Assembly: GCA_905250025.1 (NCBI GenBank)
Contig: CAJNOJ010000246.1
Coordinates: 62,001-126,000 of the forward strand
DNA from: Adineta ricciae
Lineage: Eukaryota; Rotifera; Eurotatoria; Adinetida; Adinetidae
Direction of reading: 5' to 3'
Length of the DNA: 64,000 nucleotides
The translations under genes and the position numbers were made by a program. The notes under the pieces were generated by a model. That model was not told the origin of the DNA. It did no database searches and saw nothing but the letters and a program-made list of their open reading frames with translations. Below are positions 10,611 through 54,901 of this stretch, piece by piece (position 1 is the stretch's first letter; each line of letters starts with the position of its first letter).

Positions 10611-10731
10611 ATACACACAAGTACTTCTTCAGTACATCTGAACATTGCTAACATTTTCGTTAATTCTTACTTCTTACAAGTAATAAGAAAGCTAGTTTTA
10701 GATTCTGTTGTATGAACATACTTTATCGAAA

Positions 10732-14502: not shown

Positions 14503-14782
14503 ACTGTGGGTCATTTCTCTTTTTCTCCGCGTCTTACGAGTGCTCTATACCTCGCTCAATTTAACGTTCTCATCTGATATCCCAAATAAATCTTTTCCCT
14601 GAAAAAGCACCGTTTAATCTCGAAACACAAGAAGAAAGTATCCTTGATACTTGCAGGAGAGAATAATTCATTTAGCTTTGGTAAATTTCTGGAAAAATGT
14701 GTCTCGATTTCGTGTCCGATTCGATTGTTCACGAATCACACATATTCAGCAGAACTTAAAAGCGGTGTTGCCGACCTTTGGT
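14503..14782. other. 3' flank of ATPase, no gene
   Basis: Probable 3' untranslated/intergenic sequence, including AATAAA at 14585-14590, a candidate polyadenylation signal 83 bases after the stop codon. It is absent from copy B because of the N at 25190. Confidence 0.45.
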
Positions 14783-16206: not shown

Positions 16207-18781
16207 ATGAGAACTGATCACAAATACATCCTCTCGAGAGACTTTTAAGTAGAAATTTGTGAAAATAGTAAGTCTTTTTAGATTGAACAACATCAACGAA
16301 GAGTTAAACCAATCTTTCTTACACTATTTTCTTGTAATACAAGAATAATTGCTAATAATACATACAATGGTCTATTCAGTTTCAGTCTGAATTAGAAAAA
16401 AGTGTTAATTAAAACTGAAATAAGAAAACTAGACGACTTAAAAAATCATTCATTCTCATTGTTAATCATTAGCTGTCTACTGTGAGTTCGAATATGAATT
16501 CGAAGTATGTCCTGCTAAAACGATGTCTTTGTTAAAAATTGATTTTATATAAAGGTTAATTTTTCGAAATCTCTATTAATATTCGAGCTCAAATTAAAAA
16601 TCTACTCATTCGTATATTTACTCGTGATAGTTAATAGTTGGACTCGAATAAGAACAATTTTGTTTATTGTGCTCATATATGTGTCGTATTCATTGCATCA
16701 GTGATATTAAGAGCTAATGAGAGGCAGCCTCAGAAAAGAAAGATTTTGTATATGTTTATATGAATTATTAAGAAAATACACATTGTTTAAATTAAATTCT
16801 CTATCAAATACTTGAATTTTTACTATTGTATAAGAGTGTTTACGCATCGTATTTGTACAATGTCTTTGGATTAAGAATTCGAGTACAATTGCAACATCAA
16901 AGAAACGTGATAGGTTTATTTCATCATTAGCTGAAATCAGAATTTTACGAATTGTTCAACAAATATAATCGTAGTTTCAAATAAATCTTTAAATTGAATC
17001 TCCATTATTAACATTATTTCGAACGCGTAAAACAAAAGAAGTTTTCTTAAGATGAACTTTAATGTAAAAATGTAAGTCTATGGAAATCAATAAGTATCAA
17101 CTTGATTCGTTGTGTTCAGTTGTTAGCCAAATAGCCGAGAAAAGAACAACAAGTGATAATATGTGACGGTACAGCAGCTATCGTTACAACAAAATGTGGT
17201 TCTATTATTGAGAATATTTTCATCTATAGCAGATGCAACATTTTGTTTTCTATATTTGAAGGTTGGAAACTTTATTTCACATTATCATTCGTTTGTTTAT
17301 CCAACGTAGATAAAAGTAAGTAGAATGAACAAAGAGTAAGGTTGGTAAAATGTATATGTTGCATGTAGTATGATGGTCTAATATTTTAAAAATAACCTTT
17401 TTGCAAAACTTTTCTAAAATGTATTAAAGACTTCTAAACAGATACTAGTCGATTCGCTTATTTTTCTTTTCTCTGTTTTCTTCGCAAACTCCAAAAAGTT
17501 CTTTCTTCTCACATAGTGATATTGCGCATCGATTATTTTATTGAAACATATACTGTTTCCATATTTTCTTGATCGATCGATATTTTTGTACATTATATTA
17601 ATTTACTGGCTAGGAAATATATTTGATTGTACATACCGAGATCGATTTTAGAAATGTTTTGTGTTGCAGTAACTATGTTGAATATCGAGATGCTAATTGT
17701 CTGCGTGAAGGTTGAAAAAACATTATTTAGCGTTTTGACCGTACGGTGGATTCTGTTGTCAGGTTTCTTTCGTTCGGTGCTCGAAGGATAAGGAAAAAAC
17801 ATGAGCTCGCAGCAATAAACGCTGCATAAATTAGAAACTTTTTCATTATGTTATACCTGATTTGCTGAAAAACTACATTATTTTTGGTTTTCAGAAAAAT
17901 GTACTAATGAAGCGTGACAGCATGCGACAGAATCCGTTGTATGGTAAAATTGCTAAACACTGCTATTTTTCTGCCTTCACGACGGTAGCTAAAGCCTCGG
18001 TAGTCAAGTTATTCAACGTATGATCACTGAATGATAGAACGCTTTTAAACTCGATCTCAGCGCACGCGTTCAAATGTCTCTTTATGGATAGGGCAGCCTT
18101 TAAGACCACTATGACTACGTCCCTTTGATCTATACGCTGTATGATCATTTCCTATGCCGTTATATTTGGTATGAGAAATGTAATGCATTCTTTCAGTTTG
18201 CCATTTAAATCAGTTTAAGATTTCATTCTATTGAAATGTGAGGTTGAATCTGAATTTGCTACAAAATTAGATTCGTCATAATTTCAACTTATAGTTCGTT
18301 CGTATTTACTATTTACAGTAATGCCAACAGGTGATAGTAGGTGAACGGTCTAAAGGCTGATGGTAATAAATTGACTATTAGTAAATTGGATCTTAATATC
18401 TATTTTGCACGAATAGCAAACCAAAACACAACGAATCGGCAACGAAAGTGTTCATCATCTATTCACAATTGCTAACGATTGATGTAGAATAGTTCTTTTC
18501 CCTTCCAAAGATTACAGAAATTGTAGAATTTGACTGGTAGGAAAAGAATCTTGGTGCATTTCTATTGTCCCCAGTATTTTATAATGAATAATGAAGTTTG
18601 TACATATTACTTTTCAAGAGCAAGTTCTGAGATATTTACGAACGATATGTTGTAGTAGAATTCACTCGTAGACAAGCATGTGGACTGAGTGTTTGAAAAG
18701 CTCGTTTCTCTCATTCTCAAGAGCAGCTGTAAGAATTTGAACAGATTCGTCTCCGTAGAACAGCCTGTATGGTTTCAACAC
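16207..18781. other. Gene-poor part of copy B
   Basis: Counterpart of copy A 2313-4860. No convincing gene. Open frames at 17593-17802 and 17963-18148 (minus) have equivalents in copy A, but the differences mostly alter residues and no motif is visible. Confidence 0.4.
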
Positions 18782-19166
18782 TCACTTCGGATAGAATTCA
18801 TGGTACGTCACCGAGTATACAACCATAGGATATACCTCTTCCCAACATACGAGCGCTGAGCATCTAACTGCACTCAATGTGTCAACTCATCGGTTATTCT
18901 CTTATTGAAATGCTCGTTGCGCATTCTGATGGAAAGACATTAACAGAATGTTTCTCACAAGACTTATGTCGTGNTCACTTCGGATAGAATTCATGGTACG
19001 TCACCGAGTATACAACCATAGGATATACCTCTTCCCAACATACGAGCGCTGAGCATCTAACTGCACTCAATGTGTCAACTCATCGGTTATTCTCTTATTG
19101 AAATGCTCGTTGCGCATTCTGATGGAAAGACATTAACAGAATGTTTCTCACAAGACTTATGTCGTG
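18782..19166. repeat. Exact 192-bp tandem repeat around a single N
   Basis: 18782-18973 and 18975-19166 are the same sequence (TCACTTCGGATAG... to ...GTCGTG), separated only by the N at 18974. Copy A has it once (about 4853-5040). This is the signature of two overlapping contigs placed end to end without merging, not a biological repeat. Confidence 0.9.
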
Positions 19167-19194
19167 ACGTGTGCTTTTGAAAAACGAGATGATT

Positions 19195-19404
19195 CTATTT
19201 TCCAGCACGAAAAGAAGAAAGCTGTAGTCCATTCGTTACACATTTTAGGTTTGTTTCTTACGTTAAAATGTGTGGATGATTTGGTGGCAATAAGCATTTG
19301 GCAATTTGAACAGCGCGTTGACAATAGAAGTGCGCTTTTCGATAAACAGCCTTGCTATGATACACCGAAGCGATGTTGTCATAGAATGTGGATAACGTAA
19401 ACAT
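19195..19404 (-). pseudogene. TPR-repeat remnant, copy B
   Basis: Counterpart of 5073-5282, with the same single TPR unit and LPPNHP-type linker on the minus strand. It is an isolated relic with no start-to-end protein. Confidence 0.55.
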
Positions 19405-20301
19405 TTTATAAACTAAAGAAAATAAAGTAAGTATTTAGATCAAATTCGATTCTACTACTTCACTTTTCATGATTAAATCTATTCAAATAAATAGTACTGC
19501 GTAAAACAATCAATCATTTAAAAAATGCATATTTATTATGCTGTAATACATTCTTGCTTATATTTCACATACTTCGGTTGATAAAGTACACATGATTATT
19601 CTTTCGATGTCATAATGATATTTCATCAATAATTTCTTGTTTTTCTTAAATTAAAACAGACAAATCTTTATCTTTATTTTCTGAAGAGTAAAATCTTTTG
19701 ACTTTTCCATGAAGAATTAAGATAGAGAAGATCCATTCTTTATTTTATAAAGTAGAGATAATGTAAAGTCCTTAGTGGGAAAGTAAGAGCTGAGATTAGC
19801 GAATTAATTTATATGATTGTTATTTAGGTTAATTTGTTTTCCATTTGATTTGCACTCACCGTTTGAATCCGTAGAATATCTACTGCTTTCGAATAACAAA
19901 TACAGTCTTCATTGATATTCAAAGTCATTTGACGTTTCTATTTAATTGAAATTGTTATTGTAATTCAATTATGTGCATGTGAAACCTGTAGTAGTAGTAG
20001 CCGTCCGTTCTTTCAAACTTCCACCCCTCACTCTCTGTCCTTTAATGAGTCGACCATTTCAGAATTTATCACACCAATCTTATATATCCAATTCGTATTA
20101 TAGATCTTGTCATTCAAATTCAGCATGGTTCACTGTCTATAGTGGAGTACGTTTCCACTGGGAAGGATTTGATAGTGTGGCACCCTTTCTTGTGAGTGAA
20201 AAACAATGCGAATATTTTTTAAAAGATATATTTATTTCATGAAGACAAGAACATATATTAATATTCGAACTTAGGAATGAATTATAAATAGGTCTATGTA
20301 G

Positions 20302-21258
20302 TTATGAATTCATCGGTGTTATCTGATTGGTCAATATATCGGCTTGCTGATGATCATATCGACAGAATATTTTACGAAGCAATCGAATAAACTCTTGTCT
20401 ATATATATTAGCCGAGATAATATACATAAAGAAGGGTGTAGTATACGAGCTGTAAAGAAATAGCTGACAGATTACCCAAGCAATAAAAAAGTCGACCGTA
20501 GTTGAAAATGTATTTGGCATAACCGATGCTAAGGAAGCAAAGCCTGCGGGTCCTGTAAGTAAAATGTTAGTGCTCACTTGAAGGATGAGCATACTAGCAA
20601 GTTGACTTTCAGTGCGACGATTGCGTGCGCCTGCAGCAGGAGCAACACGCGACTTTTTTATGTTGTAGATGGTCAAAACACCAAATATTGCCATGAGAGC
20701 AGGTGCAATAACAACATATACGAAAATTTGTATGAATATATACACTTGTTTGTAGACAGTATCACCTCGAACACGGCATCCTAGTGCGTCAGTCGATCGT
20801 AGATCAGTCAGAACCAAAGTGTTGACGTGAAAGAGTGCGATTGAAATAAGGACAAATGAAATCACCCACCGACTTACTTTGACATTGCTAAACATACGTA
20901 AACGAGCGCTACTTGAACTAGCACAAAATCGATCGACCGAGGTGACTACAATCATGTACGACGAGGATATTGCAGACGTTTGCGAGAAAAATGAAACCAT
21001 TTTGCATAAAATAGCAGAAGTTCGGGTCACATCAAGTTGGTATCCATCACTTAAAAGACGGAAAGTAAGAACCACGCTTGCAGAGAAAAGATTCGTGCAA
21101 GCAAGTATCAGAAAATAACGAGAGCAAGCATGCTTGAACAGGGCAGGTCTAGTAAGTATAATAATATTGAGTGAATTTCCTAGTGTACCAAAAAATATAA
21201 TTATTGGTATAATAATTTGTCGTAATACAATGCCAAGTTGTACTAATGAAATAGCCAT
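20302..21258 (-). CDS. Rhodopsin-like 7TM receptor (GPCR), copy B
   Basis: Same 318-aa class-A receptor as at 6203-7159, with all the same motifs (GNSLN in TM1, SVDRF after TM3, TTPFFMY in TM7). By eye the DNA is identical from 20114 to 21259, covering the whole gene and its 3' flank. Differences resume one base upstream of the start codon's flank (G/A at 7161 versus 21260) and 3' of the gene at 6014 versus 20113. Confidence 0.9.
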   Translation of the reverse strand: MAISLVQLGIVLRQIIIPIIIFFGTLGNSLNIIILTRPALFKHACSRYFLILACTNLFSASVVLTFRLLSDGYQLDVTRTSAILCKMVSFFSQTSAISSSYMIVVTSVDRFCASSSSARLRMFSNVKVSRWVISFVLISIALFHVNTLVLTDLRSTDALGCRVRGDTVYKQVYIFIQIFVYVVIAPALMAIFGVLTIYNIKKSRVAPAAGARNRRTESQLASMLILQVSTNILLTGPAGFASLASVMPNTFSTTVDFFIAWVICQLFLYSSYTTPFFMYIISANIYRQEFIRLLRKIFCRYDHQQADILTNQITPMNS

Positions 21259-22408
21259 GATCTCTCACGCTCGTTTTTCCACTTTCACTTTCTCTTTATA
21301 TAGTAGCTGATGTGAAACATTTTACTACGTTCATATACGTCACCATTTTAATACTCTTGATCCATTGTCAGTTATTAAATCCGCAGGTGGAAAACACGTA
21401 AATTTCATATTTCATAATTACTGAAGGGTGAGATGGTGGAGGATGAGCTTGACATAAACTCAGAGAACAAAACTGGAGCAAAAGAACTCTCCATCATTTG
21501 CAAAAAAAAAGTTTTTATGATTAAATGTATTCAAAATCGATAGTATATATTCTACAAATTACATTCCATCATGCTCAATGATGTTGCGCCAGCGTTCTGA
21601 CAGTAGTGGATGTCAATGTTGTTTTCATTCGGTTCATTGTAGCCAAAAAAAAACATCGATGCAGCAAGATCTACAGTAGTTCACAAAAGGCAACATATAA
21701 AAAGACACAATCACAAGCTTAAGTATCGACGACAACTATAGTAAAAGAAGAAACTTTAGTGATGATACTTGAGCGATTTTACTGACTATTTCTTATGTTG
21801 TTTTTTTTTATTAATTTGTCAACCGACAGTTTTATATCGGTCAGATTCCACATCGCGTGAGTTGTTTTACTTGGTGAAGAAGTTCTGCGGGATAACGGTG
21901 CGTTTGACCGAGTTGTAGTACGATGAGAAGGTCCTACAATTCGAAATCCAGCGAGTGAAGAGCTATATTTAGACGACATCGTTTGTAGTCAAGTTGTTTC
22001 TAATGCATCTGTATTCATCGTATAAATCACTATTTTTACATAATATTTCGCAAGATTTCATATTTAATGGATTGAGTATTGTTCTTTCACTAAATTCAAG
22101 ACTCTCCTATACATCGATACATATCTGCCTGTAATGAAACTTCAACGGTATTTATACAGTATATCATAGATGGCAAACAACATTGATATTTTCTAATTCT
22201 CTTCGTTTTCACCTGCTTTTGCGCACAAGGAAGTTTTTTATTCATTGCTTCTAGTCAAGAAAAAATGAAAGAAACGTGTTCTATATTATTTCTAATTAGA
22301 GAATAAATTTGAGTATGGTAAAATGTCTTGATTATGTTAAAGATGAAAAATAAATGTCATGTACGACAGTAAGACTATTTTTGCATGACTCGTTTCATTT
22401 TGTTTGTG
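21259..22408. other. Upstream region of GPCR copy B
   Basis: Matches 7160-8312 of copy A with several percent differences. No convincing gene. It contains the counterpart of the rejected small frame (21779-21979). Confidence 0.4.
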
Positions 22409-22539
22409 CCTCCCATGTCGTTCAATTTTTTATCGTAACGCCGCTATATCGCCAAAACGGCATATTGCGCCGCTATTGAGCACGATATTGGCGTTAATCA
22501 TCGTGATATATGTAAACGATCCGTGCGTCGCAATCACGC
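22409..22539. other. Non-homologous insert in copy B
   Basis: 131 bases that replace copy A 8313-8521 and end at the N at 22540. It is less AT-rich than its surroundings, with several CGCC/GGCG steps. It contains an imperfect inverted repeat, TAACGCC...ATATC (22436-22450) against GATATTGGCGTTA (22484-22496). It may be a transposon terminus or a mis-joined contig end. Confidence 0.6.
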
Positions 22540-22540
22540 N

Positions 22541-22673
22541 AACAGTCGATTCAGTGAGGGTGAGGGTGTGAGGGTGTGGGTGGGGTGAGGATGTTTGAAT
22601 CACTGATCTTGGAAGTTTGTGCAGCAATGGTAGCAGGAGAGCAGTTGGAAGAGTATGCATTTCGACCCCATGA
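22541..22673 (-). pseudogene. Partial exon of putative small membrane protein (copy B)
   Basis: Counterpart of copy A exon 8498-8629, cut at the N at 22540 and altered by extra GAGGGTGTG-type repeat units. The last, hydrophobic exon is missing. This may be real damage or an assembly break. Confidence 0.35.
22554..22590 (+). repeat. G-rich repeat expansion, possible G-quadruplex
   Basis: Five runs of three or four G (22558-22560, 22564-22566, 22572-22574, 22578-22580, 22582-22585) with 3-5 base or shorter spacers. Copy A at the same place (about 8533-8545) has only two such runs. Four or more closely spaced G-runs fit the usual G4 pattern. Confidence 0.7.
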
Positions 22674-23333
22674 CTATCGTTCTCGCACAATAGCATTGAT
22701 CGAAGTGCCCGATGGAGTGTTCTTGTAAGGACTGTTAGAAAGATGAAGATAGAACGAAACTAACTGAAATGGTGAATATTGACGATGTGATTGTTCCACC
22801 GCGGAAATGGAATGCATCCATCAGACGAAGATGTAGAAAGAGATACGTAAAACGAAATTTATCTATTTACATGGTTCACAAAGTGGCGATGACAAAAATA
22901 AATAGAAAGGAGCTCTGGCACTGCAAATTGTTTTTATACACTCCTGCTGCTAAGTGAGAAGAAATATTGAAAGAAAATAAAACTTTTCCGCCTTCTCAAA
23001 CGAATACTATAACAGAGAAAAGCAAAGTATGACGTTGGTCAAACAAAAAAATTGCAAAAGAGACGACATACATTAGTACGAGTGTTTACAAATGAAAAGG
23101 CGCGTACATAAAGACAGTTTTGTTTTTGTCTTTTGAATTATGTAAATAAGGAAGTAATTTGTAAAAGCTGCATCCTGAGTAATTAATAAACACTTCGACA
23201 AGAGAGAAAGCGACAACTCATCTTTTCCTACGACGAAACTGCATAGAAACAATTTTGATGTGAATATTGAAACTAATGTACGTCGGGTTCGTGCTAGGAA
23301 CAACAAACGGGTCATCCAAAATAGTCGTGTAAT

Positions 23334-23454
23334 CACAGTTTGTAATTAAAGACACCGTCTTTTGATATTCGGCCACAGTGTGTAATTAAAGACACCGTTT
23401 TCTGATATTCGGCCACAGTTTGTAATTAAAGACACCGTTTTCCTGATATTCCGT
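23334..23454. repeat. 40-bp minisatellite, three units (copy B)
   Basis: Units at 23334-23373, 23374-23413 and 23414-23454 share CACAGT, TGTAATTAAAGACACCGT and TGATATTC. Copy A has two units (9289-9369). Confidence 0.85.
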
Positions 23455-24049
23455 CCCAGTCAGATTATCAACATCACTGAATATGGAGAGGAGTTTGCGC
23501 TCGATAGTCAATGTCGCGGTCGAGATTTTCTAAAATTTCTCTTGTAAAACCCTTCTGTTTTAATTTGACGAACTGATAGCAAATAAAAGTATAAAAATCT
23601 TCAATAAGATCGAAATACGTTGCAAAATTCTAAATTTACTTTATTTCATAAACATCCAAGGCAATCAACTATATTATCAAGTCATACAATATGTTGGAAG
23701 AGAACGTATATAATCTTCGTCACAAAAGATCCAGAACTCTCTTTTGTTAGCAAATAAGAAAATCCGTCTATTCAACGTTACTCATTGGAATCAGTATTCT
23801 GAGTGTGCTTATTGTGAAGCGATGAATCTCCGACGCCTTGTTTCACTTAATACTGTATAGAAAAGGCAAACTTTCGTGCATGCACTCGCATCGAATAAAG
23901 CATACTAATTAATTCTACAGTTACCATCTATGAGGGAAAACATCGATTTTTAGGTGAGTTAAAGAAGGTCGACATAGTATCCCATTCTAAATAGGTTGAG
24001 AGGAAAACTGTTTCTTGAATAATTCAATTTACAAAGTATTTCATTCGAN

Positions 24050-25189
24050 GGGGTGAAGCGCAGACGGGCTATGGTAGTAATCAGATCACACCTGCCCCTT
24101 CGCCGAATTACTTCCGATTATTATTCAAACAATTATTCATGGGTTTTAATTCAATTCTTCTAGTTGGTGGTATTCTTGCTCTGATCGCTTATCAGCCACT
24201 TGGAGGATCAGAGTCATCTATTACGAATTTAGGTCTTGGCATCGTGCTTTTATCGGTGACGGTTTTCAATGCTTTTCTCAATGTGTATCAAAAGCTCAAG
24301 TCGATTAAGATTATCGCTGCGTTCGCAAAACTATTGCCGAAATCTGTTCCCACTCGGCGTGATGGTGTAGAACAACACATTCCGACTATCGAGCTCGTTC
24401 CTGGTGATATTATCTTAATTAAAATGGGTGATATCGTGCCAGCTGATTGTCGAGTTTTAACTTGCGAAGGACTGAAGGTAAATTTTCTTTTTAAAATGAC
24501 CTTTAGCGATCTTCTACATAAATGTTTAGCTTAATTCGGCCGAATTAACCGGCGAAACAAAGCCCGTCTCAATCACAGTTGAATGTACTAGTGAAAATTT
24601 GATGGAGACAACTAATCTTGGATTCTATTCTTCCCTTGTTGAAGAAGGTATGGGGGAAGCAGTGGTTGTGGCAACAGGAAACAGCACCATTTTGGGTAAA
24701 ATGTCACGCACAACGCAAGAGAGTTCAAATGAAAGAACCACGAACCTACATCGTGAAGTCAATCGCTTTGTATTGTTTGTTCTCGTCGCCGATATCACAA
24801 GTATTATTATCCTTTGGATTACATGGGGAGGCTGGCTTAATAATAGCCATCCAACATTCATTACTCTTATTGGAAATATCCTCAATTCCATTGGAATGAT
24901 CGTAAGTTTCTTACCTGTTGGTTTACCATCTGCTATTACGCTCGGTAAGTAACATCTTCACGCGGTGACAGTTGATTTTTACTCGGAATATTTAGCATTG
25001 GCAATCGTGACTAAACGAATGAGTCAACAGCGAATCTTAGGGAAAAGTTTGCAAATTGTTGAAAGTTTCAATTCGGTTTCGATAATTGCCACAGATAAAA
25101 CAGGCACATTGACAAAGAACAAAATGGTCGTGAGCGAAATCTTCTGGGATACGGACAATGGATGTAAAGTGTTTGACGACGGCGATGAA
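24050..25189 (+). CDS. Na+/K+-ATPase-like P-type ATPase, partial (copy B)
   Basis: Partial version of the pump at 10732-14502, bounded by Ns at 24049 and 25190. Three exon pieces match copy A with the same 52- and 51-bp introns: to 24477, 24530-24944 and 24996-25189. It covers TM1-TM4, the actuator domain and DKTGT, then stops before the nucleotide domain. TM4 reads PVGL where copy A has PIGL, so both lack the usual PEGL Glu. Codon differences in the middle exon are about eight amino-acid-changing to four silent. The missing ends coincide with the Ns, so this may be an incomplete assembly of an intact gene, not a true truncation. Confidence 0.8.
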
Positions 25190-25190
25190 N

Positions 25191-26850
25191 GAAGTATTGA
25201 TAAAGATGAGCGGGAGATAACATTTGAATTTCATTTCAATTCGATTGCTGTGGCCAGGATCAATATGCATCTAGTTTTGTTCGACCAATGATTGAATACC
25301 ACTGCAAGGTAGAGAACTCAACGGTTGAACTGCGATTCAATTCAAACATTTACTCGACACGTGTGACGCAATGGACTATTCAACAAATGTATGTTCACGG
25401 ATATTCCTTGATAATTATGAAAAATCGGATTATTATAGAGTGGAACGAATATTTTGATCTATGCACATGGTCTTTTGACGATATCTAACGTTTGTTCAAC
25501 AAGTTTCATTCTATGTAAGTATGAGAATTTCATCTATTTTCGTATACCGTTCCATCAAATGACACAACATATCGTTGTAAAATGTATAAAACTTCAGGAA
25601 TATATTCAGCAAAACGACATGCGGATTGCAGGATGTGAAATCGACGAAGATTTAAGGAATATACTAGTTTTTCTTATTGTGTTAGTATAAAGTCTTGATT
25701 GTGGAGAAAAATTTTGATATTGTTCATCATTTACTTCTACACGAATGTAGTCATCTGTTTAATTTGATGACAATAACCTTTCAGATGGACACTGAACGAT
25801 GCGATTACACCTTGTACAACGAGAATTGCAACTGATCGGGCAGTTGATGGCGACTATGCAAGAGCTTTATTCCGATAAGATGAGAGATAAACGTTTGCAT
25901 TTTAGACTGTTGCGTTTCACGAAGAAGCTGGGTATCCAGCTGATAGTCATTCTCAAAATAAATATTCTGTGGTTCAAATGCATGACGACAATCCCAAAGG
26001 ACATTTGAGTCGATAAGAAAAGCTTAAATAATACAAAAAAAAACTAGTTTAATTTTAATTCAGATCATCGTGGTAGTGCGAGTATACGATTCTATCTTAG
26101 TGAGCGGGTTTGACAACACGACCTTGGCTATATAATATTCGGAACTGTTTCAAAGTTTCTTGGACTTATCATTCCACCTAAAGTTGGGAATTAACGTCAT
26201 CGACTCCTACTGTTCAAGTACGACCACGTAGGTATTGTTATAAATTCGCACTTTCTTTCTACAGAGTATTCTCAAATCCGGTGTTACACTCGTATCGGTA
26301 TTTCCGTATACTCATAAAAGTCAATTATCGGATTTGGTGAAGATACGAGAAAGATTTTTGAGTAGGTTATAGCATGTGGACGAAATGTATTCGAAATAAA
26401 AGAGCTGTGGATTATCTGTTCAAAGCTGAATCTTGTAATTTCAATTATCAATTTGAAAATCGTTCACCGAAAAGAATCCAGATTTATCCGGTGAGAGTTG
26501 GTGGGTGTATTTTGAATGATCTTCTTGGTTTGCTTGAGAGGGGGACGATTTTTCGACAAGATATTTTTATAATACAATGAATAAAGACATTGTAATATTG
26601 GTAGGAATGTGTTTTGAAGTTTGAAAAGATGAGACGCGTTGTTCTATGTACGGCTCTGTTTGCAAGAAATGAGGAATGGTTAGCTGAGGGACTCGATCCA
26701 TCAGTAACATACAAAGATTGAGATCACGTCGTTTGTCAAAAGACAATTATAAACATTGCTTTCTTTCGTGATCAAAAATCATTTTATTTTTTTGTTTCTT
26801 TATTAATTCTTCAACTTAGAATAAATATATAATTTTCAGTATTCACGGTC
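25191..26850. other. Conserved block with short open frames (copy B) and right flank
   Basis: Counterpart of 14783-16205, then unique sequence to the TPR gene. Frames at 25454-25690, 25799-26008 and 26374-26580 mirror those of copy A. Just beyond, 26630-26721 has a short plus frame (MRRVVLCTALFARNEEW...) whose affiliation is unknown. No confident gene. Confidence 0.35.
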
Positions 26851-34919: not shown

Positions 34920-37900
34920 ATGCACTTGAAAACATTATTTTTATGGATTCGTGCACAACTATTGAATTACAATGTTTTTATTCCTGATGATACGGACAGT
35001 GAACCAAATCATATAACTCAAAGTATCAAATATCAACTATATGCTACTCGACTATACGTTCTCCTTCTCGTCAGTAAGTTGAACAATTTCATTTCTAGAT
35101 TCTGATATTTTGTTCATGTTGATTGTATTGTCTTAGTAACTCTCTATATTCTTTTCTTTGCAACTTTGACTGACCAACAAACACGTCTGAACACTGTTTC
35201 AAATGTAAATTCAGCTCTTTTCGATAAACTTCGTGCTGATTATGACGAAACACTTTCATGTCCATGTTCGACAAATCTTATACTATATGATACTTTTGTT
35301 TCCAACACGATCACATTTCATCCTATATGTTCGAGTTATTTTGTCAGTAGAGAATGGATTGATTTTCTCTATTTATCAGATGTATTCAAATATTTTATGA
35401 TGGATTTTCGAGCAACTGCCAGTTATCAAGTAGGTAATTGATGAGAACATCATAGGAGAAGATGTTTTTCTTGAGTGTCTTTAGTTTCAACTTCTCGCTG
35501 CACTCTGCTTATTCTCTATGCAGACAATATCGCAAACAAAAACCAATATTGCAAGTGAACAATTCTTTTCGGTCGATCTTCTCTCCGAACAAGAAGTTCA
35601 AGCTAAAATTCAGACAAATATAGATCTCATTCGTAGCGGAATACTTACTCAAGTTAATTTATATTTTGATTTTCTTCAAATTTTTACTCGATCGAATTCT
35701 TTTATCACGGCACTTAATACCAATACTTATTTTGCCGATTGGCGCACCATGAATGATGCTACAATAATAGATCGACTTTATATATTATATGTGAAATATA
35801 TTGACCTTGATGCTCCTAGTTCATCTGATATTGTTTCAACTTGTGATCTTATCAATGGGATAGTTGTTCCATCTGGATTCCTTTCGTTTGCAGCAGAGAA
35901 TGGTCTTTACGATATCATCTATCGACAGTATTGGCCTACATATCCGCCTGATTTCGAACCAGATATATCTGCATTAGTTGACGGATTCTTTAGCGGATGT
36001 ACTCCACTTGATGGTATTCTAGAAAGTACATTCGATTGTCTTTATAATCTTACTTGCCTGCAAGTTCTTGCTGATTATTTTCCTGGCCTGTACCGAGTAT
36101 ATATTTCATATTCAGTTCTTGTTTAAGATGCTTAGAACATACCCGAAGTAGTGGCGGCGACTCTGTCAGTTTTTATAGAATATTTTCAGGACTTTTCTTC
36201 ATGTATATTCTAATAGTCCGAGTCGCGCTCTATCATTTTATGATATTTCAGAAGTCTGCAGAGGGTACGATACAATGGGAAACTTAGCAAAACAGTGATT
36301 AGTTCACAAAGAAAATAGTTTTTAACCTAGTTTTCGATCGATTTTTTCCTTAATACTCAAATTTCTTGTGATAAAAATATGGTATTTGTAATCAGCGCAA
36401 AAAACTGAATTTATATATATATATACTTCAAAATGTTTCGTTGACTTTCATTTTCATCGAAAAAATAGCTGTGGTCTTCCGGGCAGCTAAGTTTTCCATT
36501 GTATAGTACCATCTGAAGACTTCTGAAATATCATAAAATGATAGAGCGCGACTCGGACTATTAGAATATACATGAAGAAAAATCGTGAAAATATCCTATG
36601 AAAACTGACAGAGTCGCCGCCACCACCACTTCTGGTATGTTCTAAGTAATAAATAGTTTTCTTCTCATACGATAGATTGATCTCGATTCAATCCGATTAT
36701 ATCTGTCGTCAAATCAAACACATCTCTCATTGAGGAAATACTTCAGTAATCTTCTTGTTGAACAGTGGATGACAAACATCAATTATTCGCAATATTTTAC
36801 TGCATGTGCTTCGAAATCTTGTACTTACACCAGAATTATTCAAACAAATTATTCGTACACAATCACTCTTTTTCTTAGTCTGTATGGTGGTCTTATCATT
36901 CTGCTTCGTACACTGTCGTCGGGTTCAATTAAAATTTCGATGAAACTCAAACGCCGTTCAGATTATTCAAGAATCAATAGTGGTATGTTTGTTTCCAGAT
37001 AATAATCGGATATTTTTCTAAGATTAATCATATTTCTGTTACAAGGATGTACACAATGGTTGAAACAATTGAATCTATTTAAGTCAGCAAATAATCGAAC
37101 GTCAACGGATATACAAAATCAACGTTTCACTACACGCGTTTATCTGATTTTACTTGCAGGTATGAGAAGACTTTTCTGTTGGATGAACGATATGTTAGGG
37201 AGAGTTTTATTGAAAAAGTCAGCAATAATCACGGAAAATAAAGAGTAATCACAGGATCTAATACAGAGAAGAAAAGTAGACAGACACAAAAGCAAAATAA
37301 ATGATTCAATAGCGAAGGATCATCATAAAAACATAACGAAAAACGAAACATAATCATCAAATTCATATAGTAACAAGTCAGGTTAGTGAAAACGAGTTAG
37401 TTTATTATCTACCTTCGAATAACTTTTGTCAATCTAAGAATTGATTAGCTAAGATTTATTAGGCATAAAAGTCATCTTGTTTAAAATGATATTGTAATGT
37501 CCGCTTTCTATTATTTAAGGTTCAATCTATATTTTTTTAATGTTTACCTCGCTTAGTACCCATGTGGTAATCGCAAGTGAACCATATCCTTCTTTTGGTA
37601 AATATAACGAATTACAAAAGTTATATTCGAGTACATTGAAATGTCCTTGTTCGAATATATCAATACCTTACTCAAGAATCACATCAATATCTCCACGTAT
37701 TCATCAAATTTGTTCAAGTGTTTTCGTTAGTGAAATGTGGATTTCATTAACGAAAACAATATCTCGTTTGTCGTGGTATGGTTTAGATGCTCGACACTTT
37801 CGACTATTGTCTAGTATATGTAACCTAATTAACCAAACAACCGATGATGCTCTACGTCGATTCGATGCTCAATCTTTGGTAACTTCAAATGTTATTAGTG

Positions 37901-40900
37901 AACGTGATTTTAATGCTCAGTTGAATATTACCATCAATCAATTTATGGAAGGACTAGTCATCAATTTTGGTCTTCTTATCAATGTTACACGACTTTTCAT
38001 TCAAATCGATCAGCCTTTCGCTAGTCAAAACTACATGTACTTGCAATCATTTGACATGACATTTAACCGTACAAATCAGAGTATATATAATCAGCCACCA
38101 CCAGAAGTAAGTTAATTTCTTCTTCTTTTTGATTTTCCTCATTTTCATCTTGACTGTTTCACCTTGATTTAAATGAATCAAGCTGTCAGAAGTGCTCCTA
38201 AGAATTTCACTTCAGAAAGTTTCCTACTTTAAGTGATCAGTTAGAAATTGTTTTCTTCGTTTAGTTGACTTTTCGGTTGACAGGTATCATCAGTTACAAT
38301 GGAACATCTACAGATTGTATCTGTGCTCTCGACACTCAATGTCAATATGCAGTTACATTTTATGATTGGCAGAATTTCTCCATGATCGAACCTTATATAG
38401 TACCTGGCATGACGGTAGGCTGTTTTGTGTTTGACTCTCTCAAACTTTCGACACTCGAATGTTTTTATTCAAACTTTTGTTTATCGTTGTTTTATTATTA
38501 TATTAATCAAACAATGTTGAAATCAGATACAGGAGTTGAATGGTTCAAAGCTTTTCCCTTAGTTTATGATGAAAAATCGACTCAATTTGCTCCGGAGACT
38601 TCACTCGAAATTATATTTAACAAAATGATGATGGAACAGTGGAGCATATCTTTATCGTTTGATCAATATTATGTACAATGTGCACCTATCTATTGTACAT
38701 ATTCTCGAATAGAATCGACGAGAAGTTTCATGACGATAATAACAACGTTCATATCTTTAATCAGTGGTCTTACGGCTGCATTACACTTTATCACGCCTCA
38801 ACTTGTCAAAGCGATCTTCTTTTTTTTCTTAATTCAACCACGTATCGAAGAGCAAAGACAACGTAAGTAAGAAACTATCAATAGAAGTCGTTTTGAGCAA
38901 TTAAAAAGAAAACATGACAAATCACTTTCGTATCTTTATCAGTCAATACTGAAGTGAATGTTAGGAAAAGAAAATCTGTAACTGGTTTTTGTACTTAGGT
39001 ACTCAATCAACTTTTCGTCAAAAATCAATAACAGTATGGCGAAAATTGGTTATGTTTTTATTTACAAAAATATTTAGTATGAACATGTTTCCTCCACGAC
39101 GTTTCCCAAGTGACATCGATGCAGCCAGAAGAAAATATTTAGGTCAATATGCAACTCGGCTCTATATTGTTCTTCTGATTTTTGGTCTCTTAATACTAAC
39201 CATCTATACCGCTGTGGAACCTCGGATTCTAACAAAAACGTTTCCTAAGCCATCGCTCAGCGTCTATCAGCGTCTCATGCGTGATCATAATGATACGCTT
39301 CAGTGTCCATGCTCGACGATTTCATCAATATATAATCAATGTGTTTCAATAGAACCAGTTTTTCATCAGGTATTTGAAGTCGAATATGACTCGCTGATTT
39401 TTATCCATGATACACATTTGATAATTCATAGGTCTGCTCGAGTCCATTCGTTTCGGATGAATGGAGAACAAAGATTTTAACTGGTTTCGTTCCCGATCTT
39501 TCGATATATGACATACACGACTATCGTCGATTTCTCTTCGCACATTTTCAATTTCTTTACGGTTTATGTGATGTTTCTGTGCGATCAGTTAATGAAGCAA
39601 TTAATACATTTCTCTCCTCATCGTTTATCACACCCCAGCTACAATCAGAACCAGATCTCAGTGGATATATCAATTCATTGGTTGAACAAAGTAAATCCCA
39701 AGCTCCACAGACACTTACTCGTCTTATTTTCCTACTATTATCCATCAATCGTGGCAATGCATTTGTAACAACATATGGAACCAACTATCAATATGTCGTT
39801 CCTCCGTTCAGTGGGTTTACGATATATGGTATGTTGGTCCTTTATATGTACGGTGTATCATACAAAAGTATTTAAAAAGATATACGAGTAACACTTTAAC
39901 TTTGCTGTAAAACTCAAAGTTAAAGTATCTACTCAATTTGAAAGGTTTTACTTTTTTGAAAGCTGATTTGCCAATCCTACATCAGTTGACCATCTTTTTA
40001 TCGGAAAATTCATCACTTTCCAACTCGATTGCTAGAAGATGATTATGTTTGTCTTCATCTTTAACCCAAGACGGATATTTTGAGAGTACAGCGCTTGTCA
40101 GTGGTGATTAAAACAGTCATCATGAATCACCTACTTTAAATTACGCAGTTTTCGAAGCGGAGTTAAAGCTAAAATGTCACTTCTAAATATGTATATCTTA
40201 GGTGGGTGGACTGTGGCATACACCGTTCCCATCAACTATGACAATAACTGTTCGTGTGCATTTAATACAAATTGCACAACTACAGCCAAGTTTTTTAACG
40301 TCAATTCGTCAGAAAAGATATCGGTTGAAGGTTTTAGAATGGGTTGCATACCATCAGAATCATTTTTTGCATCGAATCTTCAATGTTTATATAATTTATC
40401 ATGTATCAATCTCATTGAACAACATATTAACTACACAAATACTGCATCTATGGTTGCACTTAATTCGACAGATCAAAGTCGGTTCTTGATAAATACAACC
40501 ATACAAGATTTTTCCAATGATCTTTTCATTGAAAATTGGTCAACAATCATCAACTACCCAGTATATTTTGATATTTGTGCACCTGCTTATTGTTCTTATA
40601 CTTCTACTGAACAAGTTAATTCACTTTATACAAAAACCTTTCTCCTGGGACTCTATGGTGGACTGAGCGTTGTTCTCAAATGGATATGTCCCACAATGAT
40701 CTATGTAATATTTCAAGCGTATCAGTATCGAAAGAAACGATCAAATATCGTCAAAGCAACTACCGAAACAGACAATGGAATAAATACTTCGATCTATTTT
40801 TCTAATGGCAGTGTCCAGCCAGAATCAAAACTTTCTTTAACACTGCTACGATTCGTATTCTTTGCTATTTTACTGCTACTGTTTATCGGTTTAGGTTTTC

Positions 40901-42265
40901 TCGGACCAATCATTTATCTTCATGCAAAAGAAGATAATCAGATTTCTCAACAAAGTATGTTTTTAAATTTGTTCTGTATATTTCAGTAAAATAAGCTAAG
41001 TATGATGAATTCTATGTATCTTTTTATTTTATCTAATCGTGTTTAAAATATGTTCTCTTTGTTTAGACACGATCAGCACGATAATGGCTGATATGTCAAC
41101 AATAGTAACGTCAGCTGCCACTTCATCAGGTAGATATATGTAATACAGAAAACAGTAGGATTCTCGATATTTTTCTCCAGCTACACCTTGTCAGTTAACA
41201 TTTCAACCTGCAAAGTCGTACTTTATGGGCTCTAACGCATATCCAACGGGAATTGCAGTCGGAAATTTGAACGGTGATGCATACCGAGATGTTGCAGTTG
41301 CAAACTTCCAAGCCGATAATATACGTATCTTATTTGGTGATATTAATGGAACTTTCCAATCACAAATGACATTGTCCACTGGATCGGGCAGCAGTCCACA
41401 CTCAGTTATTCTTAATGACTTTAACGACGATGGACATCTAGATATTGCTACAGCGTGTACGGACAATAGTAGTATAGGTGTATTTCTTAACTTGGGCAAT
41501 GGAAGCTTCGGAGAGCAAATCATATTCTCGACTGCGCCTTACTGTGAACCGTTTTCACTTCTAGGTGAAGATTTTAATAAAGATGGCAAACAAGACCTGA
41601 TTACTGCCGGTTACAGTTGGGAAAATATGGTTATCCTCTTTGGTAACGGTGATGGTACTTTTTCAGCATTAAACCACTTGTCAATTAGTAATGTTGCTCA
41701 AATAATTGCAAGTGATTTTAACCGCGATGGAATATTAGATCTCGCTGGAATTTATGGTTACTGTAACGGTGTATTTATATGTTTTGGCACAGACTACGGA
41801 TACTATAGCACACCAGTGATGCTACCGACAGGACAGTATAGTTGTCCTGCCTCTATTGCTGTTGATGACTTTAATCATGATGATTACTTCGATTTGGCTG
41901 TTGCAAATGATCACAAAAATATTATCAATGTTTATCTTGGTAACGGCGACGGAACTTTTCAAAATCCCACGACATACACAATTGGGGGCTATAGTAGTCC
42001 TCGATGGATCAGTGTCGGTGACTTTAACAATGATTATCAATCCGATATTGTTGTTGCAGATACGAATAGACATAACATTGGCATATTGACAGGCATTGGT
42101 AATGGGACTTTCCTACAGCAGATCACGTTCTCGTTAACAAAACATAGTATTGCGTGCTGCTTTGATGCAGGAGATTTCAATAATGATGGCAAACGAGACA
42201 TTGCTCTCGTCGATACTTACAATAATACAATAATAATCCTACTTAATTCATGCGATTGCTGCTAA
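34920..42265 (+). CDS. Three-module polytopic membrane protein with C-terminal seven-blade FG-GAP domain
   Basis: Twelve exons join with matching phase: 34920-35073, 35137-35429, 35485-36096, 36676-36982, 37046-37159, 37520-38106, 38265-38862, 38999-39369, 39432-39828, 40202-40954, 41067-41129, 41181-42265 (5334 nt, 1777 aa). Three homologous modules follow one another: a short cytosolic part, TM (YATRLYVLLLV / TTRVYLILLAG / YATRLYIVLLIF), an ectodomain with L(S/K/Q)CPCS, HxICSS-FVS--W, CxCA, CLYNLTC-type and C-(S/T)YxR Cys motifs, then a second TM and a basic stretch. After module 3 a further TM (FVFFAILLLLFIGLGFLG) leads to seven FG-GAP units with DFNxDGxxD calcium loops, as in integrin-alpha propellers. 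Likely cell-surface; ligand unknown. It could be three genes, but the phases and absence of stops at the junctions support one. ATG 34920 follows an ATCTTTAG, so an earlier exon is possible. Confidence 0.75.
36131..36645. mobile_element. Foldback/MITE-like element with long inverted repeats, inside an intron
   Basis: Left arm 36131-36288 and right arm 36485-36645 are inverted copies (CTTAGAACATACC... against ...GGTATGTTCTAAG), about 160 bp each with scattered mismatches, separated by a roughly 196-bp AT-rich centre with no coding potential. The element sits in the 579-bp intron 36097-36675 of the FG-GAP gene; neighbouring introns are often 50-160 bp. No clear target-site duplication was seen. 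It is non-autonomous, and the mobilising transposase is unknown. Confidence 0.85.
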
Positions 42266-43048: not shown

Positions 43049-44514
43049 ATGCATCTGTTTTTGATTTTCATTACTGTTTTACTTTCTCTTTCCAATACTC
43101 ATGGGATCGGAGATGAAGCTGGTTTTAATCATATGATGAAATCAATCGATAAAGCCTGTAGTAACATTCATGCTCTTCTTACCTATCAACGGAAAATCAT
43201 CAGCATTCAAGTTACGAAAGATTTTCCTCTTCGTCTGAAAATCGATTTGGAATTGATGTCTCAATCGTCGCCGACATCGAAACATAATTTCATGCACTGT
43301 TGAAGGTATATGGTTTGTCATCATGGGTTCGATCGAAATGCAGCACAAGCTGCTTGCCGTTCTCAAAAGAAGAAACTTCAGATGTTTTCACCAAATGATC
43401 TATATGATAAATGTTACTTTCAATATAACAATGATCCTTTCGTCGTTCCATGGGACTTTGTCTTAGATAATTTCAATTGCACAAATGATATGCATGTCGG
43501 AATTGGATGTGGAGGAACTTGTAAGAAGTTGCTGTTATCCATTCAAAAAACTAAGGTTTGATTGTGTATTTAGATGAGCCTCCTACAACCACTACTACGA
43601 GTGCCGAAGCCTTTTTAGTTACGCCTTGCTCTACTGCAACCTGGTCTCGAGAAGGCACAGTGGTGGCAGGACGAAATCCTAATACGGGAAATAGTCTAAT
43701 TGGTCCATCTGGCTTGTATGTCAATTCGAACAATACTGTCTTCTACACGGATCCTTTCCGTTCGGCAGTTATAGAATGGCAGACAGGTGCGACATTTGGT
43801 AAGATCTTGGCTCGGCCCGGTTTGCCTCACGGTTTAGTTGTTGATGATGAGGAAACCTTTTATGTAACTGATGACAAGCAGGTGACACGTTGGACAAAAG
43901 GAGCTACTGTAGGAGAAACTATCATTTCTTCTGCGGGAATACTTAGTGGTATTGCTTTTGATGCAAAACGAGAACATATTTACGTCGTAGATACGGAGAA
44001 AGGCGTTTTCAAGTATGACAGAGATGGAACAAATGCAGTGCTCGTTATCCCCAAAACTGAAGATAGTAAGTGACAAAACATACGTTTGATCAACTGTTTT
44101 TGCTAATCCTTGCTCTACTATTTAGTTAGTACCATTGCGGTTGACAGCAACGGGGCTATCTATTGGGCAAATTACGTGGGTGATAAAGTGATGAAGTTGT
44201 CAGTGAATGCCACATCAAGTATTATTATAGCTGGCGGCAACGGAAAAGGAAACGGAACAAATCAGTTTTGGAATCCATATGGTATTCTTGTTGATCGGCT
44301 TGGCACATTATACATAACCGACACGGTGAACAGTCGAATCGTACGTGTACCTTCAGATGGTGGGGCGCCAACGATCATTACCGGAGAGCAAGGTCAATTA
44401 CGTTATCCTGTTAACCTTACCTTCGATCGCTTGGGAAATCTCTATGTGATAGACAATTATAGTGAACGAGTTCAGATGTTCACATTTGACAAGACTTCAT
44501 GTGCTCGACAATGA
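43049..44514 (+). CDS. Secreted SRCR-like/NHL-repeat protein with an in-frame TGA
   Basis: Exons 43049-43520, 43574-44065 and 44126-44514 join in phase (introns 53 and 60 bp). The N-terminal signal peptide is MHLFLIFITVLLSLSNTHG. A scavenger-receptor-Cys-rich-like segment follows, with VCHHGFDRNAAQAACRS, KCYF and a later GCGGT. A Thr-rich linker (PPTTTTTS) leads to a beta-propeller of NHL repeats, with units like PSGLYVNSNNTVFYTD, PHGLVVDDEETFYVTD and PYGILVDRLGTLYITD, ending at TGA 44512. The same frame has one internal TGA at 43301-43303, inside the SRCR segment where many SRCR domains have a Trp (TGG), so it may be a single nonsense change or an error. About 450 codons in total. Likely extracellular and ligand-binding. 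Confidence 0.75.
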
Positions 44515-48782: not shown

Positions 48783-50724
48783 ATGGCACAAGAAATACGT
48801 TGGAGAACAACTATGAATGATTATATCGTTGTCTGGCTTTTTGAATCTAATCAAGTCGGAACAAAATCAGAAATAAATCAACTTGTTCCACCTACAAATA
48901 CGCTCAAAATATTTCCTCAATCGAATGATTGTATAGATTATATTCAACAAGCGGTGAATGAAAACGTTATTCTTGTTATTTCGGATTTTTTCATTCCAGA
49001 AGTTCTGCCAGAGGTACATAATTTCCGACAATTCCATTCATTTTATGTGCTCGACTCCAATACTGGCGAATACAACGCATCCTATATGAAGTCGAGAGGC
49101 CTGTTTTGAAATTTTGAGTCTGTTTATGATCAATTTCATGAAGATATTCATCTTGTCGAAGAAACGGCAATACCAGTAAGTATTTTAAGTTCACAAGCTG
49201 TATCTACTGCAGATTTGAATACACTCGACCCATCACTTATGTATTCTCAAATACTCAAAGAAATTCTATTGGAATCCAATGATAACGAACAAGCTCGGCG
49301 AGCGTTTCTTCAGCTTTGCCGTGAACAGTACATTGATAATGAACGAGAATTGGGTATCATCGATCAATTTGAACATGATTACGAATGACATTCTCCGGCA
49401 TGGTGGTATAAAAGAGAATGCTTCCTCTATAAAATGCTTAATAAAGCTCTCCGAACAGAAAATTTTGATATATCATATCAAATAGGGTTCTTCATACGCG
49501 ATCTTCATCGACAGATTGAGCAAGTTCATTGCAAATCCGATCACGGACACGCCACAGATTCTGTATCGCGGTCAAGGGTAAGTCGTTAACAGAATATCGT
49601 TGGATGCCGGAGTTGTATTTTATCCATGTAGAATGTTCATAGATGAATTCAAACAATTGAAAAAAAGCACAGGTGGTCTTCTTTCATTCAATAACTTCCT
49701 TTCGACAAGTACGAGTCGTGATATTTCACTTCGATTTGCGCGACGTTCCTTGAACACAGAAGGTCTCGTATCGATCCTGTTTGAAATTCAAGTAGATCCA
49801 GCAATTCGATCCATTCCATATGGATCATTACGTGAAGTTAGTTATTGTTCAACAGAAAACGAAGTTCTCTTTTCAATGCATTCAGTCTTTCGAATTAATG
49901 ACATTGAACATATGCATGATCGCATATGGAATATTCAGTTACAATTAACGAAAGATACTGATCTGCAGTTATGCAAATTAACGGATTACATGCGTAACCA
50001 AATTTGTGGTCCAAATGCTATACATCGTTTAGCATCGTTTATGATGACCGTACGTAAATGGGATACGGCCAGGGACGTCTTTGAAACTATGCTTGTGAAT
50101 GGAGAGGGTAGGAATGGCAATGAGCTATCGTATATCTCACACAATGTCGGTTGGATTTACGAAGAGAAGGGTGATTTGGGCAAATCTCTTGAATATTATC
50201 GAAAATCAATTGACTTCGATTTGGCAATGGAACATTATCAACGTGCGCTAACGATCGAACTGGCATGTTCGTCACCTGATCAAAACAAGATTGCATCACG
50301 TTATATGAATATGAGTGATCTTCTACGACAACTTGGGCGATTAGAAGAACCACGTGAGAATGTCAAACGTGCGTTGGACATCCGGTTGAATACTCTGCCA
50401 TTGACACATTCTGATCTAGCGACAACCTATGGTCATCTATTTGATATTTGTCTGTTGATGAATGATTATGAGCTAGCTCTCGAATATGCCAACAAATCCT
50501 TGTATATCTGTCAAAAAGCATATTCTGTCAATGATTTTCGTATCGCGACCGCTCACAACAATGTGGCTGCAGCTTTAGATTAACTTCAGAAATATGAAGA
50601 AGCATTAACTCAAGCGGAGAAGGCGCTGAAAATCGCTCAACATACTTACGCATTAGGTCAACCGGAGATACGCATGATTGAAAACTCGTTGAATGCACTT
50701 CGTTCTCTGGCCGCCATTAATTGA
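48783..50724 (+). pseudogene. ADP-ribosyltransferase (ART)-TPR protein, disabled by stops and a frameshift
   Basis: Bdelloid-type ART-TPR gene. The N-terminal domain runs from ATG 48783. TGA codons interrupt the same frame at 49107-49109 and 49386-49388. After YKRECFLYKMLNKAL and FIRDLHRQIEQ a one-base frame change occurs at about 49520-49550. The ART core then follows: LYRGQG (Arg motif), a 54-bp GT..AG intron (49578-49631), FLSTSTSRD (the STS motif), and a C-terminal EVSYCSTENEVLF with the ExE pair of arginine-specific enzymes. TPR units follow (about 50140-50580), with an apparent internal deletion near 50210, and a TAA at 50581-50583 before the last repeat ends at TGA 50722. The catalytic motifs are intact, but four lesions make an active protein unlikely. 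Confidence 0.8.
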
Positions 50725-53775: not shown

Positions 53776-54901
53776 TTATTTTTCCTGCGAACTGTTCATC
53801 AAATGTTTATCAGTCATATTCGTGCCACATTCGAGAAGTAATTTTTCGCAGCGATGTTGTTGATTTTGAATTTCTACTTGCGCCTTTTCTCCTTGTACAA
53901 CTGATTCACGAAAGCGTTCTAAAAGATCACGAATCTCAGTTCGATTTGAGTCTTGCACATCCAGCAATTGGCTGATGATCTGTTGTTGTTCTTCATTCTT
54001 TTCTTTAGCCGTATCCAATTGTTTCTTGATCAATTCGTCATGAGTACTCGAGATTTGATTCATCAGCATTTGACAAATTGGAAATGGTTCGACGCTTAGA
54101 CATGTGAATAGCTCGATGAGTCGTTCGCGATATGCAGATATTGTAACATATTGGTCTATGAGACTTTCATTGCCATTGTTGTAATCGTCTCGATTGAGTG
54201 AACCAGAAAAGAAAATGCCCAGTTTGAAATACGATGCGATGCTTCTGAAAAAATGATCTTGTAAAAGTTCTTGTTTGTATGTTTCAAGTTGATCTACGGC
54301 TTTCGATTCACAGTGGGTTATAATCAAACACGAATTATTTGCTAATTCAGGGCCGAGAAATTCGATCAACAATTCAAGAGATTTTATGTCCTCTGCATTG
54401 ATACCATTAGTAATAGCTATGCAAAAACAAATCACATGAAACTTTGTAATTTCCATATTGATACAAAATTGAATTGTTCGCATGATTGTCTCATTGTCTC
54501 GAATATCGATTTCAGATGTGCCACGTTCGAACAAGCCAGGTGTATCGATGATATTAAGCACCATTTTGTTGTCATGAGCATGAAACGATTCGAAGAGAGG
54601 TTCTCTGGTACCAGATTTAAGAGTTAATTCATCCGGTACTTTGGTTGGATCCGTTAGTAACATTTTGATACAAGATTTTCCTGTTCGTGTTCTTCCAATT
54701 AGCATTACATTTTTATGATTCGCTCTGGTCACTCGATGTTTACCATGACATAGATAGTCGCCTTGAATTTGTGCCATGATTTTAGCACGTTTCGATGCAG
54801 CATCTTCTGGTTTCGATCGATCGCGTAATGGTTTGGGCTAAAAAGAAAAGAAACAATGACTCGCAAACCCCGAAAGTCGTCCCACTTACCACTTCAGTCA
54901 T
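53776..54901 (-). CDS. AIG1/GIMAP-like GTPase with C-terminal coiled coil
   Basis: Minus-strand gene of 357 aa. A 12-nt first exon (54890-54901, MTEV) joins across a 52-bp intron (GTAAGT..TTTTAG, 54838-54889) to one long exon (53776-54837). The G domain shows the P-loop GRTRTGKSC, a switch region with a conserved Thr candidate, the DTPGLFERG Walker B/G3 motif and THCESKAVD where GIMAPs have their G4-like motif. The last 90 residues form a Gln/Glu-rich coiled coil. There is no TM tail, so the protein is probably cytosolic. GIMAP/AIG1 GTPases oligomerise on membranes and act in immune or stress responses in animals and plants; the role in rotifers is unknown. Starting instead at the internal Met at 54777 would give 333 aa and leave out the short exon. 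Confidence 0.85.

What the first reader, a model, noticed from the sequence alone, without database searches (positions are those of the whole stretch)
34920..42265. A 1777-aa receptor-like protein with three tandem membrane modules and an external FG-GAP propeller
Twelve exons with fully consistent phases give one protein with an internally triplicated TM/Cys-rich/TM unit and a seven-blade FG-GAP domain. I know of no described family with this architecture. The repeated LxCPCS and CSS-FVS signatures suggest a lineage-specific extracellular domain. The gene could be a multi-ectodomain surface receptor or adhesion protein.
Basis: partly seen in the sequence, partly recalled or inferred. Interest (0 to 1): 0.7.

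Follow-up and report, generated by a model that had tools for sequence, protein, structure and literature searches.

The report
Three-module membrane protein with outer propeller
This gene encodes one large membrane protein made of three copies of an undescribed two-pass module plus a seven-bladed propeller; it belongs to a big gene family in this animal whose members usually show three modules, which hints (unproven) that the three act together as one trimer.

Summary
The 12-exon, 1777-aa model is reproduced and matched exon by exon by a diverged copy elsewhere in the genome, open through exons 2-12, Ka/Ks 0.33. Three ~430-aa modules (TM, Cys-rich ectodomain, TM) align with each other at E 3e-26 to 1e-42; a seventh TM leads to seven FG-GAP calcium loops. 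Relatives read across module borders in one open frame, one (L041) cleanly through three modules, so one gene per module is unlikely. It is not a singleton: capped searches give 222 matching places on 127 contigs. Of 15 relatives read at length, 14 show three modules (three of them with the first module cut by the fetched edge), one is unresolved. In two genes the three modules are 67-80% alike within the gene, about 50% between genes. The module has no credible Pfam, NCBIfam or PDB match and no profile similarity to this genome's DEG/ENaC or P2X proteins. I infer, without direct test, a single-chain pseudotrimer with an exchangeable outer head; the one structure model was poor.

The parts
34920..36982 (+). 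Module 1: exons 34920-35073, 35137-35429, 35485-36096, 36676-36982 (aa 1-455); TM1 about 35031-35180 (interrupted by intron 1), TM2 about 36850-36924
   Evidence: Gene model; hydropathy and module alignment (TM coordinates converted by hand from its residue numbers); profile and leave-out profile
37046..38862 (+). Module 2: exons 37046-37159, 37520-38106, 38265-38862 (aa 456-888); TM1 about 37126-37581 (interrupted by intron 5), TM2 about 38724-38837
   Evidence: no in-frame ATG in exon 5
38999..40821 (+). Module 3: exons 38999-39369, 39432-39828 and most of 40202-40954; TM1 about 39136-39234, TM2 about 40636-40719
40822..40929 (+). Seventh transmembrane stretch, between module 3 and the propeller
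   Evidence: Hydropathy; similar stretches after module 3 in L044, L046, L047, L061 and L062
41067..41129 (+). Exon 11, short Ser/Thr-rich stalk
   Evidence: same length in the homeolog
41181..42265 (+). Exon 12: seven-bladed FG-GAP propeller, seven calcium loops, Cys near each end
   Evidence: Pfam; loops; Cys pair present in 6 of 6 aligned propellers
36097..36675 (+). Intron 3, enlarged by an insert with inverted arms (not coding)

Best explanation
One gene of a large multigene family of this animal. Supported by sequence: one polypeptide with three tandem TM-ectodomain-TM modules, a seventh TM and a seven-bladed FG-GAP propeller, under purifying selection. Inferred: the basic linkers lie in the cytosol, so the three Cys-rich ectodomains and the propeller lie outside. 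Inferred: the three modules pack around a common axis as a single-chain pseudotrimer, much as four repeats of one chain make a voltage-gated sodium channel (established knowledge), because members keep three even where the modules of one gene have been re-made or homogenised separately. Inferred: the propeller, apparently replaced by another repeat domain in one relative, is an exchangeable calcium-stabilised outer head that binds a ligand or surface, and the TM2 helices with their conserved Gly-Gly carry the change through the membrane.
For: Gene model and homeolog, Ka/Ks 0.25-0.43 for modules and propeller. Frames across module borders in relatives. 14 of 15 relatives show three modules; in a capped list, 16 of 55 clusters have three and one has more. 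Positional grouping of modules in the FG-GAP clade (support 100 each) but within-gene grouping in L058 and L059 (100 each), 67-80% within and 47-51% between. Basic linkers 10:2 and 13:4 Lys+Arg to Asp+Glu. Second Gly of TM2 in 30 of 30 modules; TM2 the most conserved region at positions 1 and 3. Cys near each end of 6 of 6 propellers. Other repeat domain behind the same modules in L061.
Against: No structure: AF2 of exon 10 had mean pLDDT 52. No profile similarity to trimeric DEG/ENaC or P2X proteins. Modules of the window gene are only 26-28% alike, and TM2 is not the most conserved region at position 2. One cluster of four exists (C269, one member partial with a stop); clusters below three may be incomplete because lists are capped. 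In L043 a further module upstream of the fetched piece is not excluded; L060 is unresolved. The N-terminal 42 residues are not basic (3:4) and sequons are not enriched outside (27 in 1386 against 3 in 176 residues). Basic residues follow TM7 in L044, L047 and L062, against an outside propeller. All counts come from one genome. Homogenisation within genes could keep similarity without any trimer.
Confidence: 0.4

Rival explanations
1. Beads on a string: a surface receptor or adhesion protein in which each module is an independent ectodomain anchored at both ends, three being historical, and the propeller binds a partner as in integrin alpha chains. No trimer and no pore.
Against: It does not predict a steady three in genes whose modules turned over separately.
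Confidence: 0.4
2. A very divergent member of a known two-TM trimeric channel family (DEG/ENaC or P2X) joined three times in one chain.
For: Same gross plan of TM1, Cys-rich ectodomain, TM2; three copies equal the subunit number of those channels (established knowledge).
Against: Pfam ASC or P2X listed for 0 of 23 modules up to E 1, PDB 0 hits up to E 10 while a DEG/ENaC protein of this genome finds 26 PDB sequences; hhalign probability 0.1-0.2, reversed modules 0.1-0.3. Limit: the channel profiles held three sequences each, and ASC against P2X also gave only 0.1.
Confidence: 0.1
3. Two or three separate genes in tandem (perhaps processed by trans-splicing) that the exon model wrongly joins.
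For: In-frame Met codons near the start of module 3, and in the homeolog one just before module 2.
Against: No in-frame ATG in exon 5 of the window; linking exons kept with their frame in the homeolog, though one acceptor has moved; open frames across module borders in relatives.
Confidence: 0.03

Closest known systems
Integrin alpha chains and other FG-GAP propeller proteins (Pfam PF13517, PF01839)
   Same: Seven FG-GAP repeats with calcium loops
   Different: The rest of the chain is three tandem two-TM modules without a Pfam match; integrin features outside the propeller are recalled, not tested
DEG/ENaC (PF00858) and P2X (PF00864) trimeric channels
   Same: Two TMs around a Cys-rich ectodomain; three units, here in one chain
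   Different: No sequence or profile match; the genome has its own members of both
Four-repeat voltage-gated sodium and calcium channels (recalled, as an analogy only)
   Same: Subunits joined in one chain in a fixed number
   Different: Three instead of four repeats, large ectodomains, no homology tested
Expanded FG-GAP, NHL and 7-TM receptor families of the bdelloid Adineta vaga (PMC3846280)
   Same: Named there as lineage-specific expansions (passages seen)
   Different: The passages seen describe neither the module nor the three-module plan; species identity of this genome is not established

Membership tests
FG-GAP propeller (PF13517, PF01839) | Score above the Pfam cut-off | tested here: met
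   FG-GAP_3 138.1 bits (cut-off 26.9), FG-GAP 69.3 bits (cut-off 22.1), exon 12
FG-GAP propeller (PF13517, PF01839) | Seven calcium-binding repeats | tested here: met
   Seven loops by pattern; no 3D model obtained
DEG/ENaC (PF00858) | Pfam or profile match | tested here: not met
   0 of 23 modules up to E 1; hhalign probability 0.1, small ASC profile
DEG/ENaC (PF00858) | Trimeric fold with palm, finger and thumb | tested here: inconclusive
P2X receptor (PF00864) | Pfam or profile match | tested here: not met
   0 of 23 modules up to E 1; hhalign probability 0.1-0.2, small P2X profile
CD36 (PF01130) | Pfam match | tested here: not met
   0 of 23 modules up to E 1
CD36 (PF01130) | Profile-profile or fold similarity | not tested
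   The genome search for CD36 did not complete
Single-chain pseudotrimer (proposed) | Three modules in one chain, count kept | tested here: met
   14 of 15 relatives show three, one unresolved, edge limits stated; one cluster of four
Single-chain pseudotrimer (proposed) | Three-fold packing of the modules | not testable with these tools
   Structure tool takes contiguous window translations only; needs a structure of the spliced protein

The most novel reading that the evidence does not exclude
A new family of natural single-chain pseudotrimeric membrane receptors or channels: three subunits joined in one chain, kept at three while the modules of some genes were re-made or homogenised separately, and carrying exchangeable propeller or repeat heads as a sensory or recognition repertoire.
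Probability: 0.2. Interest if true: 0.85.

Novelty: new variant of a known kind. Interest (0 to 1): 0.6.

Why it matters
If the pseudotrimer reading holds, this is a three-fold counterpart of the four-repeat sodium and calcium channels: a subunit joined to itself as many times as the assembly needs, with the count kept while the modules turned over. It would also be a repertoire in one animal in which a constant membrane chassis carries different outer heads. Even without that, it brings out an abundant membrane module that the family libraries searched here do not hold.

Tried and rejected
Separate genes per module: disfavoured by open frames across module borders and by the homeolog. DEG/ENaC and P2X membership: not supported (positive control). 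Sequons as evidence for topology: not enriched, not used. AF2 of exon 10 with four window rows: mean pLDDT 52, so no fold search was made; alignment A3 of N-terminal pieces was made but not folded. Viral contigs: 14 pattern matches, none confirmed. Genome contigs: no search ran, the alignment had no stretch conserved enough. NHL as an alternative head: the capped list was only read by eye, and I saw none behind a module-3 exon. Spliced leader: sequence recalled from memory, no exact match, so uninformative. CD36 profile comparison and the FG-GAP model were not obtained (80, 93, 97, 105, 107, 109, 112). Literature: searches listed, by title and start of abstract, no description of this architecture; passages of PMC3846280 were read, nothing else was opened.

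Rows dropped: L060 left out of the tree and counted as unresolved; L043 module 1 dropped from the second tree for gaps; position-wise conservation left out L039 and, for position 1, also L043. FG-GAP places given to and one search were selections (92 places; 33 and 21), mainly one row per locus or short frames.

Full report
Setting.

The gene. Trying the GT/AG pairs at the junctions gives four open models of 1777, 1776, 1764 and 1763 aa. The 1777-aa model has exons 34920-35073, 35137-35429, 35485-36096, 36676-36982, 37046-37159, 37520-38106, 38265-38862, 38999-39369, 39432-39828, 40202-40954, 41067-41129 and 41181-42265. On contig C422 lies a diverged copy (L039, minus strand) with the 12 exons in order. 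Leaving aside exons 1 and 5, the other ten have equal lengths or differ by 3 bases (exons 3 and 12). Exon 1 there has no ATG at the aligned place, and its contig ends 276 bases upstream; the aligned exon 5 acceptor is not AG, but an AG lies 24 bases upstream, in frame by inspection. Exons 2-12, taken at the aligned borders, read without a stop. Ka/Ks is 0.334 overall; 0.254, 0.349 and 0.299 for modules 1-3, 0.274 for TM7, 0.425 for the propeller, 0.552 and 0.435 for the two linkers. The start at 34920 is supported by L044, L045 and L046, which begin in a similar way.

The modules. BLAST identity between them is 23-28%. A profile made only from other loci finds all three. Across 30 modules of ten genes the conserved columns include twelve ectodomain cysteines, N-x-F and Thr-Arg before TM1, and Gly-Gly-Leu in TM2 (first Gly 25 of 30, second Gly 30 of 30). 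TM2 is the most conserved region at positions 1 and 3 (mean pairwise identity 0.59 and 0.61 against 0.46-0.52 for the ectodomain parts) but not at position 2 (0.48 against 0.55 for the stretch before TM1). The two linkers are basic (10:2 and 13:4) and the ectodomains acidic (20:35, 22:27, 17:24), which fits cytosolic linkers; the N-terminal 42 residues are not basic (3:4), and sequons are not enriched in the supposed outer parts (27 in 1386 against 3 in 176 residues).

The propeller. Exon 12 scores 138.1 bits with FG-GAP_3 and has seven calcium loops. In six aligned propellers of the family (the window's included) a Cys at the beginning and one near the end are present in 6 of 6, as for a disulphide closing the ring. 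This and the general habit of FG-GAP domains (established knowledge) favour the outside. Against it, basic residues follow TM7 in L044, L047 and L062.

One chain. L041 holds three complete modules in one open frame of 1314 aa. L042 (1325 aa) and L040 also run into a third module in one frame, but with an N inside it, and in L042 a stretch is repeated around the N. L012, L013 (the same gene as L044), L018 and L056 read module 1 into 2 in one frame, L030 and L037 module 2 into 3.

The count of three. Nine relatives were first fetched, chosen as best hits or long frames: nine of nine show three modules, the first being cut by the edge of the piece in L040, L043 and L047. For L040 the list shows no module match just upstream (the one before it ends at 17665); for L043 a further upstream module is not excluded. 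Six more were taken every twelfth from the list: five show three (L057 interrupted by stops; one module of L058 with a stop), and L060 is unresolved. A capped list of 105 matches to one module of L058 falls into 55 clusters: 16 of three, one of four (C269, one member partial with a stop), 13 of two and 25 of one. Clusters below three may be incomplete, since only best matches are listed.

How the threes arose. In a 44-module tree of 15 genes the FG-GAP clade groups by position with support 100 for each of positions 1, 2 and 3, so its triplication is older than that clade's spread. The modules of L058 group with each other (100), as do those of L059 (100), at 67-80% identity within the gene against 47-51% between the genes; modules 1 and 3 of L040/L041 group together (100). 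This is either repeated triplication or homogenisation within genes; in both cases the number stayed three. That is the main ground for inferring that the three act together, and it rests on one genome.

Family size and heads. Two capped searches give 222 distinct places (exons or modules, not genes) on 127 contigs. A search with exon 10 lists 150 places, of which 71, at E 1.6e-40 or better, I take as module-3 exons of the window's clade. Of these 71, 14 have an FG-GAP match within 7 kb downstream in the selected rows of the capped lists. This is an undercount: C862 (L062), without a listed match, has a divergent FG-GAP when read. C530 (L061) has, about 1 kb behind the same modules and TM7, two copies of a repeat of about 117 aa (50% alike) without a credible Pfam match; that they belong to the same transcript is inferred. 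Of eight relatives of this clade whose downstream side was seen, seven have FG-GAP (L039, L043, L044, L046, L047; L045 about 5 kb downstream; L062) and one has the other repeat (L061).

Known families. Pfam lists, for 23 modules up to E 1, thirteen scattered families, each in one or two members, best E 0.0067, none a two-TM receptor or channel. NCBIfam lists two, in one member each, at 0.022 and 0.04. PDB sequences: none up to E 10. As a control, one DEG/ENaC frame of this genome finds 26 PDB sequences. The genome has its own DEG/ENaC and P2X genes; profile comparison gives probabilities of 0.1-0.2, and 0.1-0.3 for reversed modules. Limits: three sequences per channel profile, and ASC against P2X also gave 0.1. 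An AF2 model of exon 10 was poor (pLDDT 52, pTM 0.30) and no fold was compared.

Conclusion. I commit to a single-chain pseudotrimer with an outer head (0.4), with a string of independent ectodomains as an equal rival (0.4). The architecture is shown by sequence; assembly, side of the membrane and function are inferred.

Noticed in passing
window 2313-16205 and 16207-26616: Seven pieces of the first stretch recur in order in the second at 92.5-96.4% identity, with single N bases at several joints (16206, 18974, 22540, 24049, 25190): a tandem duplication or a second haplotype scaffolded in line.
   Followed up: partly
window 36131-36288 and 36486-36646: Inverted arms (161 bp, 92% alike) inside intron 3; the homeolog's intron is about 61 bp, so this looks like a MITE-type insertion.
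   Followed up: partly
L058 and L059: The three modules of one gene are 67-80% alike within the gene but about 50% between the two genes: repeated triplication or within-gene homogenisation.
   Followed up: partly
L061 1586-2500: A tandem repeat domain of about 117 aa without a credible Pfam match lies behind the same modules and TM7, in place of FG-GAP.
   Followed up: partly
L039 (C422:66000-75969): The homeolog lacks the ATG at the aligned start and has moved one splice acceptor; whether it is still translated from another start is open, since the contig ends there.
   Followed up: no
window 53779-54837 (-), 49582-50580 (+), 43555-44070 (+): Neighbouring frames match AIG1 (9e-12), TPR (4.1e-18) and NHL (9e-8) families.
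   Followed up: no
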